The notes beneath the pieces were generated by a model. That model searched no databases. It was not told where the DNA came from and saw only the letters and a list, made by a program, of their open reading frames with translations. From Rhabdothermincola sediminis (lineage in GTDB: Bacteria > Actinomycetota > Acidimicrobiia > Acidimicrobiales > Acidimicrobilacustridaceae): a stretch of DNA of 64,000 nucleotides. Both the position numbers and the translations under genes were made by a program. Shown in pieces: positions 20,590 to 22,715 of this stretch. Position 1 is the stretch's first letter, and every line of letters begins with the position of its first letter. The stretch spans positions 62,001-126,000 of the forward strand of contig NZ_JACFSZ010000003.1 of NCBI RefSeq assembly GCF_014805525.1, read 5' to 3'.

Positions 20590-21114
20590 TCAAGGCAACT
20601 GCTCGACGCGGCGCAGCTCCCGCCGGTAGCGGGCTGCTCGTTGCACGTAGGACCACGCGGGCCCGGAGATCATCTCCGGGGTCACCGAGTTCTCCCGGAT
20701 CCTGGCGGGGACGCCGAGGGCCATCGCCCCCGAGGGCACCTCCATGCCAGCCGGCACCACGGCGTTGGACCCCACGAGGGCGCCGGAGCGCACGACGGCA
20801 CGATGCAGGACCACCGCGCCGTTGCCCACCAGGGCTCGGTCCTCCACCGTGCAGCCCTCCAGGTGGACGATGTGGCCGATCACGCAGTCGTCGCCCACGA
20901 TCGTGGGCAGCTCGGCCGTGCAGTGCAGCACCGAGCCGTCCTGCACCGAGGTGCGGGCCCCGATGTGGATCCACCCGTCGTCGCCGCGCAGCACCGCACC
21001 CGGCCACACCGAGGCCTCCGGGCCGAGCACCACGTTGCCGATCACCACGGCATCGGGATGCACGTAGGCCTCGGGGTGGATCTCGGGGACCTGGTCGCCC
21101 AGCGCGTAGATCAT
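20590..21114 (-). CDS. Gamma-carbonic-anhydrase-like hexapeptide protein
   Basis: 174 aa left-handed beta-helix protein with isoleucine-patch hexapeptide repeats (residues 15-135). Two zinc His positions match the family (His64 in VLHC, His81 in IGHIVHLEGC), but the third, expected two residues before the GC, is Glu86, with an extra His at 84. It may therefore bind metal differently or not be a carbonic anhydrase. Its ATG overlaps the flavin reductase stop (TGATGA), so the two are translationally coupled. Confidence 0.82.
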   Translation of the reverse strand: MIYALGDQVPEIHPEAYVHPDAVVIGNVVLGPEASVWPGAVLRGDDGWIHIGARTSVQDGSVLHCTAELPTIVGDDCVIGHIVHLEGCTVEDRALVGNGAVVLHRAVVRSGALVGSNAVVPAGMEVPSGAMALGVPARIRENSVTPEMISGPAWSYVQRAARYRRELRRVEQLP

Positions 21115-21614
21115 CAGACCGTGAACCGGCCGTACCCGCCGCGATAGAAGATCAGCGGACCGCCCTCGTGCAGCACGTCGAGGTCCTGCACGGCGCCGAT
21201 CACGATGTCGTGGTCACCGGATGCGACGACGTCGCCGATCGTGCAGTCGATGTAGGCCAGGGCTCCCTCCAGCAGGGGCGACCCGTTACCCGAGCGCTTC
21301 CAGCCGATCTCGGCGAACTTGTCGGGAGCCTTGCTGGCGAACACCCGGCACACGTCCTCTTGGTCGTCGGCGAGCACGTTCACGCAGAACGCACCAGCGG
21401 CGCGGATCTTGGGCCAGCTCGAGGACTGCTTCCCGGCGCAGAACAGCACTTGCGGCGGTTCCAGCGACAGCGAAGCGAAGGAGCCGACGGCCAAGCCGAC
21501 CGCCGTGCCCTCGCTCATCGCCGTGATCACGGTGACCCCGGTCGGGAAGTGGCCGAGGACCTGTCGGAACTTGGCCGCGTCGAAGGTGGTGCTGTCGTCG
21601 GTGATGTCGCTCAC
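21114..21614 (-). CDS. Flavin reductase domain protein, 166 aa
   Basis: NAD(P)H:flavin oxidoreductase of the flavin-reductase-like (HsaB/HpaC) family, which supplies reduced flavin to two-component monooxygenases. The FMN-binding core is seen as FPTGVTVITA, GLAVGSFASLSLEPPQVLFC and AFCVNVLAD. The GTG at 21614 is chosen because a TAGTGT box (21623-21628) lies 8 nt before it; the longest frame (to 21650) would run into a hairpin repeat. No oxygenase component is adjacent; the coupled downstream gene is a carbonic-anhydrase-like protein. The promoter region holds four GAAC-N-GTTC sites. Confidence 0.85.
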   Translation of the reverse strand: MSDITDDSTTFDAAKFRQVLGHFPTGVTVITAMSEGTAVGLAVGSFASLSLEPPQVLFCAGKQSSSWPKIRAAGAFCVNVLADDQEDVCRVFASKAPDKFAEIGWKRSGNGSPLLEGALAYIDCTIGDVVASGDHDIVIGAVQDLDVLHEGGPLIFYRGGYGRFTV

Positions 21615-21632
21615 GGCCGCGGACACTACCCC

Positions 21633-21754
21633 CGAACTGTTCACCGGCACGCGGTCACGAACCGCGCCGGGCTGAACGGTTCGCTCACACCCATCACCCC
21701 CGGCGAACTGTTCACCGATACGCGGCCCACGACCGCGGCGGGCTGAACGGTTCG
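21633..21754. repeat. Two tandem 51-bp hairpin repeats with GAAC-N-GTTC ends
   Basis: Units at 21633-21683 and 21704-21754 match at 43 of 51 positions. Each begins CGAACTGTTCA and ends TGAACGGTTCG, which pair with one mismatch (U-G wobble on the plus-strand RNA), and has an inner stem CGCGG / CCGCG. Five of the eight differences fall in the central loop, the rest at bulges. The four GAAC-N-GTTC cores are centred at 21638, 21678, 21709 and 21749, spacing 40, 31 and 40 bp. The block lies between the MBL hydrolase stop and the flavin reductase start. Confidence 0.85.
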
Positions 21755-21791
21755 TTGGCGAAGGTGCTCGGGGGCTCCGACACCGAGCAGG

Positions 21792-22715
21792 TCACCGAGC
21801 GGCGGCGGTGACCCGCCCCAGCGTGATGGTGAGACCCTCCCAGGCCGCGAGGACCTCCTCGATCCCGAGGCGATCGGCCTGTTCACGCACCACGGGCATG
21901 AACCCGTCGATCACCTCGTCGGAGTGCGCGGGGTCGTGGTGGAAGAGGGCCAGGCGCCGCACACCCGCTTCGCGGGCCACGTGGAGCGCGTAGTCGACGG
22001 TGCAGTGGCCCCAGTGGGACTTCAGCGCCCACTCCTCGTCGGTGTACTGGGCATCGTGGATGAGCAGGTCGACCCCGTCGGCCAGCTCCAGCACCTCCGG
22101 CGCGACCTCGAAGCTGCCGTCGAGCGGCTGCTGGTGGTCACTGAGATAGGCGACGGTCGCTCCGGCCAGCTCCACCCGGTAACCGAACGTGGGACCGATG
22201 TGCGGCACGTAGCGCGCCCGCACCTTGGCGTCGCCGATCGCCAGGTCGTCGGCGTCGATGGTGTGGAACTCGATGTCGCCGATGAGGTCCCCGACCCGCA
22301 CGGGGAAGTACGGCGGCCGCATGAACTCCTCGAAGGCCTCGGCGACGGAGATACCGTCCTGCGGAGGACCGTAGACGTCGAGCCGGGCTCCGGAGCGGTT
22401 GAGGGGGACGCAGAACGGCAGCCCCTGCACGTGGTCCCAGTGGAGGTGGGTGACGAGGGCGTGCGCTCGGAACGAGCCGTCATCCGTCTGAGTCTCACCG
22501 AAAAAGCGGAAGCCGGTACCCAGGTCGAAGACGATGGGGTCGCTGTCGGCGGTCTCCAGCGCGACGCACGCCGTGTTGCCCCCGTGGCGCCTGTTCGCCT
22601 CACACGAGCACGGTGTCGAACCACGCACGCCGTGGAACGTCACGTTCAACGACGGTTCACCCCCCGGTACCGACGCAGCGAAGACCCCTCTGAAAGTGCC
22701 ATCCACGCTAGTCAT
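21792..22715 (-). CDS. MBL-fold metallo-hydrolase, 307 aa
   Basis: Metallo-beta-lactamase-fold hydrolase of the RNase Z/PhnP-like group. The metal motif is THLHWDHVQGLPF near residue 90, with further ligands in SDHQ, HDAQYTDEE and FHHDPAHSD. The N-terminal FHGVRGSTPCSC segment is typical of this branch, which includes cyclic-phosphodiester hydrolases; the substrate cannot be fixed. It stands alone before the hairpin repeats and is divergent from the epoxide-hydrolase-like gene. ATG at 22715 begins MTSVDGTF. Confidence 0.85.
   Translation of the reverse strand: MTSVDGTFRGVFAASVPGGEPSLNVTFHGVRGSTPCSCEANRRHGGNTACVALETADSDPIVFDLGTGFRFFGETQTDDGSFRAHALVTHLHWDHVQGLPFCVPLNRSGARLDVYGPPQDGISVAEAFEEFMRPPYFPVRVGDLIGDIEFHTIDADDLAIGDAKVRARYVPHIGPTFGYRVELAGATVAYLSDHQQPLDGSFEVAPEVLELADGVDLLIHDAQYTDEEWALKSHWGHCTVDYALHVAREAGVRRLALFHHDPAHSDEVIDGFMPVVREQADRLGIEEVLAAWEGLTITLGRVTAAAR

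What the first reader, a model, noticed from the sequence alone, without database searches (positions are those of the whole stretch)
21633..21754. Tandem 51-bp hairpin repeats with helically phased GAAC-N-GTTC sites
Two 51-bp units, 43/51 identical, 71 bp apart start to start. Outer arms and inner stems are conserved while the central loop has diverged, the pattern expected when symmetry is selected. The four GAAC-N-GTTC cores are spaced 40, 31 and 40 bp, close to whole helical turns, and at about -24, -64, -95 and -135 from the predicted start of the flavin reductase. This could be a cooperative operator array for an unknown regulator, or two copies of a REP/MITE-like palindrome. It does not fit the actinobacterial SOS box, which has four bases between GAAC and GTTC.
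Basis: partly seen in the sequence, partly recalled or inferred. Interest (0 to 1): 0.8.

Follow-up and report, generated by a model that had tools for sequence, protein, structure and literature searches.

The report
REP-like palindrome pair in an operon
The two hairpin repeats are copies of a short palindrome scattered about 47 times through this bacterium's genome, just after gene ends; they sit as extra DNA in a gene cluster that relatives keep tightly packed, so they look like a REP-type genomic repeat and not like a switch for the flavin reductase gene.

Summary
In detail: two 51-bp imperfect palindromes (43/51 identical) lie at 21633-21683 and 21704-21754, with the stated core spacings. 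The operator reading fails. A covariance model finds 47 copies at about 37 places in the same 3.3-Mb genome, one clear copy in another genus of the family, and a pattern search finds none convincing in 394 other genomes of the class. Copies are intergenic; 40 of 45 gene ends that face a copy lie within about 70 bp of it. One of 34 placed loci is divergent, against 35% of long gaps. The cluster MBL-fold hydrolase, flavin reductase, gamma-carbonic-anhydrase-like is conserved across the family with a typical 12-bp first gap; here that gap is 177 bp and holds the repeats. A second array splits cdsA and dxr in the same way. Consensus: CGAACTGTTCA-N6-CGCGG-N7-CCGCG-N6-TGAACAGTTCG. Blocks are 89% identical between loci; spacers and loop 37%. 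Half-sites were not seen alone. This is the anatomy of REPINs, but there is no Y1 (RAYT) transposase, no GTAG or CGTC tag and no target duplication. Best reading: a lineage-specific REP-like family kept by recognition of its blocks, with an unknown mobiliser.

The parts
21633..21683 (.). Palindrome copy 1 (51 bp): CGAACTGTTCA-N6-CGCGG-N7-CCGCG-N6-TGAACGGTTCG
   Evidence: RNA fold z -5.0 on + strand
21704..21754 (.). Palindrome copy 2 (51 bp), 43/51 identical to copy 1, 71 bp downstream start to start
   Evidence: RNA fold z -4.3 on + strand
21684..21703 (.). 20-bp spacer between the copies; the four other arrays have 10-11 bp
21615..21791 (.). 177-bp gap between the MBL stop codon and the flavin reductase start; 12 bp in most relatives, so about 165 bp is extra DNA carrying the two palindromes
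21792..22715 (-). MBL-fold hydrolase (Lactamase_B_2), first gene of the conserved cluster
21114..21614 (-). Flavin reductase (Flavin_Reduct); start set to GTG at 21614 by comparison with orthologues
20590..21114 (-). Hexapeptide-repeat, gamma-carbonic-anhydrase-like protein, third gene of the conserved cluster

Best explanation
The two units are copies of a lineage-specific, REP/REPIN-like repeat that inserted as extra DNA between two genes of a conserved operon; the two copies probably arose from one by tandem duplication. Shown: about 47 copies at about 37 places in one genome, a fixed 51-bp length, intergenic positions close behind stop codons, whole palindromes only, near absence from relatives, and about 165 bp of extra DNA in this operon compared with relatives. 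Inferred: the 11-bp arms and 5-bp core blocks are kept because a protein recognises them as an inverted pair, most likely the enzyme that copies or moves the element, or else a host DNA-binding protein. The N6 spacers and the loop drift freely. Positions behind stop codons are where such inserts are tolerated. There the transcript forms a strong hairpin that may protect mRNA 3' ends or assist Rho-dependent termination, as reported for E. coli REPs.
For: Copy number: 46 forward matches at up to 3 mismatches against 0 for the reversed pattern; 47 places scoring at least 37.9 bits with a covariance model. Restriction: one strong copy in 36 other family genomes and no good match in 394 class genomes. 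Position: 12 convergent, 21 tandem and 1 divergent locus, against 35% divergent among gaps of 80 bp or more, P about 5e-6. Empty sites: MBL-to-flavin-reductase gap 177 bp here against a typical 12 bp; cdsA stop to dxr residue 10 is 287 bp here against 45-180 bp in 23 of 24 relatives. Block against spacer identity between loci 0.89 against 0.37. At up to 1 mismatch there are 35 forward and 35 reverse half-sites, and those listed pair into palindromes. The REPIN anatomy described in PMC3116915 is the same: two conserved inverted blocks around a poorly conserved spacer.
Against: No Y1/IS200-type transposase in a genome rated 100% complete, so the known mobiliser of REPINs is missing. No target-site duplication longer than 2 bp stands out. 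No two loci share more than 14 of 19 spacer and loop positions, so recent dispersal is not seen; only tandem copies are near-identical. Block conservation could also reflect a host function. No same-genus genome was available, so insertion is inferred across genera.
Confidence: 0.8

Rival explanations
1. A genome-wide set of functional sites: a host DNA-binding protein (nucleoid, supercoiling or termination factor) reads the arms and the CGCGG cores, and selection keeps the sites at gene ends.
For: Blocks 89% identical while spacers and loop are near saturation; fixed 51-bp length; strong 3'-end bias; uneven distribution over contigs, P about 0.02 with some contig lengths estimated.
Against: Nearly absent from 36 family genomes, which would have to lack the protein or use another site. 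REPIN theory explains the same conservation by mobility (PMC3116915).
Confidence: 0.25
2. Transcription-terminator or mRNA 3'-end hairpins: the RNA hairpin stops RNA polymerase or protects the upstream message.
For: 40 of 45 facing stop codons lie within about 70 bp; strong hairpins; C-rich flanks that could help Rho load; REPs are reported to aid Rho-dependent termination (PMC2817692).
Against: No U-tract and no terminator-like site found. Arms vary little by compensatory change, and G-U pairs are not preferred over A-C mismatches in the sense strand: 4 against 9 in tandem loci. In the window the array sits inside a cluster that relatives keep as a tight operon. Other 3' ends sampled have unrelated hairpins.
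Confidence: 0.2
3. A cooperative operator array controlling flavin reductase, as first proposed.
For: Position 18 bp upstream of the start codon and repeated dyads at 40, 31 and 40 bp.
Against: Not found upstream of orthologues; 47 copies beside unrelated genes; dyad lost in variant copies; copies lie at gene ends and almost never between divergent genes.
Confidence: 0.03
4. MITE ends of a DDE transposon, with 11-bp terminal inverted repeats.
For: Perfect 11-bp inverted ends in many copies; MITE-like AT-rich elements with GAACTGTTCA ends occur in Lachnospiraceae and Treponema.
Against: No target-site duplication; half-sites were not seen apart from palindromes, so no longer parent element was found; inner CGCGG blocks are as conserved as the ends.
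Confidence: 0.1

Closest known systems
REPINs (inverted REP doublets, e.g. Pseudomonas fluorescens SBW25; PMC3116915)
   Same: Two conserved inverted blocks at fixed distance around a poorly conserved spacer; intergenic; tens of copies or more; occurs as a pair; some tandem clusters.
   Different: No RAYT/Y1 transposase in the genome; no GTAG-type head; half-units do not form hairpins of their own; solo half-units not seen; compensatory change is limited.
CGTC-tagged REPs (PMC3733652)
   Same: Palindromic repeats with no dedicated transposase.
   Different: No CGTC tag; longer (51 bp) and symmetric.
Stem-loop repeat families at 3' ends of genes, e.g. Ype, Efa and Bor (PMC1590033)
   Same: Lineage-specific stem-loop repeats concentrated behind stop codons.
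   Different: Different sequence, length and host group.
Integron attC sites
   Same: Folded outline (outer stem, unpaired internal loop, inner stem, terminal loop) and position behind stop codons; comparison from memory.
   Different: No R-box consensus, symmetric, scattered beside unrelated genes; no integron integrase above the curated cut-off.

Membership tests
REP-like repeat (broad sense) | Short palindrome, about 20-60 bp | tested here: met
   51 bp, RNA fold z -2.9 to -5.0
REP-like repeat (broad sense) | Many dispersed extragenic copies in one genome | tested here: met
   47 copies, about 37 places, nearly all intergenic
REPIN with RAYT | Inverted pair of conserved blocks with less conserved spacer | tested here: met
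   0.89 against 0.37 identity
REPIN with RAYT | RAYT (Y1_Tnp, PF01797) encoded in the genome | tested here: not met
   No match at E<=1 in a genome rated 100% complete; the control search matched 10 of 14 genomes
GTAG / CGTC REP super-families | Unpaired GTAG or CGTC tag at one end | tested here: not met
   Flanks are only C-rich on the left and G-rich on the right, no conserved tetranucleotide
MITE | Target-site duplication | tested here: not met
   Flank match for k=3 to 9 is near the shuffled mean; k=2 about 2 sd above it
MITE | Parent transposon with the same ends | tested here: inconclusive
   Half-sites found only as palindromes; transposase families other than Y1 not searched
Operator of flavin reductase | Conserved upstream of orthologues | tested here: not met
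   Absent in 23 relatives with the same gene pair
Intrinsic terminator | Hairpin followed by a U-tract | tested here: not met
   0 sites found; G-rich flank instead
Integron attC | Integron integrase in the genome | tested here: not met
   Only weak tyrosine-recombinase matches, best 65.7 bits against a cut-off of 265

The most novel reading that the evidence does not exclude
A REPIN-like population of palindromes that is copied by a mobilising enzyme other than a Y1/RAYT transposase, recognising the paired TGTTCA-N6-CGCGG blocks, in an actinobacterial lineage.
Probability: 0.25. Interest if true: 0.6.

Novelty: new member of a known kind. Interest (0 to 1): 0.35.

Why it matters
It turns a suspected operator into a repeat family with a measurable anatomy, and adds an example of REPIN-like architecture in a genome without the enzyme thought to maintain REPINs. 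If the blocks are read by another enzyme or a host protein, that factor is unknown and could be sought directly with the 51-bp unit.

Tried and rejected
Rfam: only a tRNA in the window. RAYT: none. Integron: none above cut-off. RNA selection: no G-U preference and limited covariation in the arms; near-perfect N6 pairing is nevertheless enriched (8 loci against 2.0 expected, P 0.0006). Flank pairing: own flanks only slightly better than swapped ones (35 of 500 shuffles as good). A gene bracketed by two copies (C2, 92115-92725) is a decayed AbiEi/nuclease-like ORF and not a general mobiliser; DUF559 occurs once in the genome, far from the known copies. Viral contigs: no match.

Full report
Observation. 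Core spacings of 40, 31 and 40 bp and the distances to the flavin reductase start are correct if the start is GTG at 21614, which orthologues support. The motif is far above chance in the window, and three of the four folds beat every shuffle, the fourth all but one.

Copies. A search of the window's own genome with the region gave dozens of further matches. The paired arms at up to 3 mismatches gave 46 forward matches against 0 for the reversed pattern, including a few that lack the core and are probably chance. A covariance model from 33 copies scored 47 places at 37.9 bits or more; I count about 37 separate loci, five of them arrays of 2 to 4 copies with periods of 61, 62 or 71 bp.

Anatomy. 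The consensus is CGAACTGTTCA-N6-CGCGG-N7-CCGCG-N6-TGAACAGTTCG, with C-rich sequence on the left and G-rich sequence on the right for about 20 bp. Between loci the blocks are 89% identical and the core 91%, although the core was not part of the pattern that found the copies; spacers and loop are 37%. The N6 spacers do not pair in most copies, but near-perfect pairing is enriched (8 loci against 2.0, P 0.0006). Some outer arms read CGTTC or TGATC, so the GAAC-N-GTTC dyad is not essential.

Position. Using a gene finder I trained on the fetched regions, 34 loci could be placed: 12 between convergent genes, 21 between tandem genes and 1 between divergent genes. Divergent gaps make up 35% of gaps of 80 bp or more in the same regions; the binomial P of at most 1 in 35 is about 5e-6. 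Forty of 45 facing gene ends lie within about 70 bp. Three copies overlap the edge of a called ORF.

Relatives. In 36 other genomes of the family the model gives one strong copy (G007, 60.7 bits) and weak matches of at most 31.7 bits. In 394 other genomes of the class a core pattern gives four matches at 3 mismatches, which look like chance. No genome of the same genus was held.

Empty sites. The cluster MBL-fold hydrolase, flavin reductase, gamma-carbonic-anhydrase-like is conserved in the family. Of 23 relatives in which the first pair was measured, most have a gap of 7 to 20 bp, typically 12; three have longer gaps (76 to 158 bp) and one overlaps; none shows the palindromes, while this genome has 177 bp. 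In a second place, a three-copy array, the cdsA stop to dxr residue 10 is 287 bp here; 23 of 24 relatives have 45 to 180 bp, and one reads 475 bp with no gap sequence recovered.

Interpretation. An operator specific to flavin reductase is contradicted. The anatomy matches REPINs as described in PMC3116915, but the genome has no Y1 transposase, there is no GTAG or CGTC tag, and no target duplication. PMC3733652 describes CGTC repeats that also lack a dedicated transposase, and PMC1590033 describes stem-loop repeat families at gene 3' ends. I therefore file this as a new REP-like family in the broad sense and not as a RAYT-linked REPIN. What keeps the blocks is not shown; recognition by an unknown mobiliser or by a host protein are both open.

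Limits. Gene calls are my own and not curated. The background for gap types comes from regions chosen around copies. Some contig lengths in the distribution test are estimates. The mobiliser search covered one transposase family and integron integrases.

Noticed in passing
L086-L151 (Lachnospiraceae, Treponema and other MAG contigs; many loci in this range): AT-rich palindromes of the form TTAG-GAACTGTTCAGAAATAA...TTATTTCTGAACAGTTC-CTTA recur in many contigs and look like a MITE-like family with similar ends.
   Followed up: partly
L115, L118, L152 (Bacteroidetes HyVt-532): GAACTGTTCACGTT...AACGTGAACAGTTC elements flanked by long inverted repeats that differ between copies, up to 15/15 in L152.
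   Followed up: no
L051:5116-5726 (G000:C2:92115-92725): Two copies of the element bracket a decayed AbiEi/REase_MTES_1575-like ORF.
   Followed up: partly
G000 contigs C2 against C5, C6, C10, C12, C14, C16, C17: Copies are unevenly spread: 10 loci on C2 where 3.0 are expected, none on several large contigs; P about 0.02 with some lengths estimated.
   Followed up: partly
21755-21791: A small separate hairpin (tgctcggtg...ccccgagca) lies between the MBL stop codon and copy 2, also within the extra DNA.
   Followed up: no
L162 (G005:C136:4158-4208): A 51-bp hairpin with arms CGAACTGTTGAGTGCC and GGCACTCAACAGTTCG close to what looks like a tRNA gene; possibly a distant relative, possibly chance.
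   Followed up: no
L159:1930-1980 (G007): The one strong copy outside this genome, overlapping the end of an ORF whose C-terminus (PPPP...SELFIDPRPTTANP) is read from the element and its C-rich flank.
   Followed up: partly
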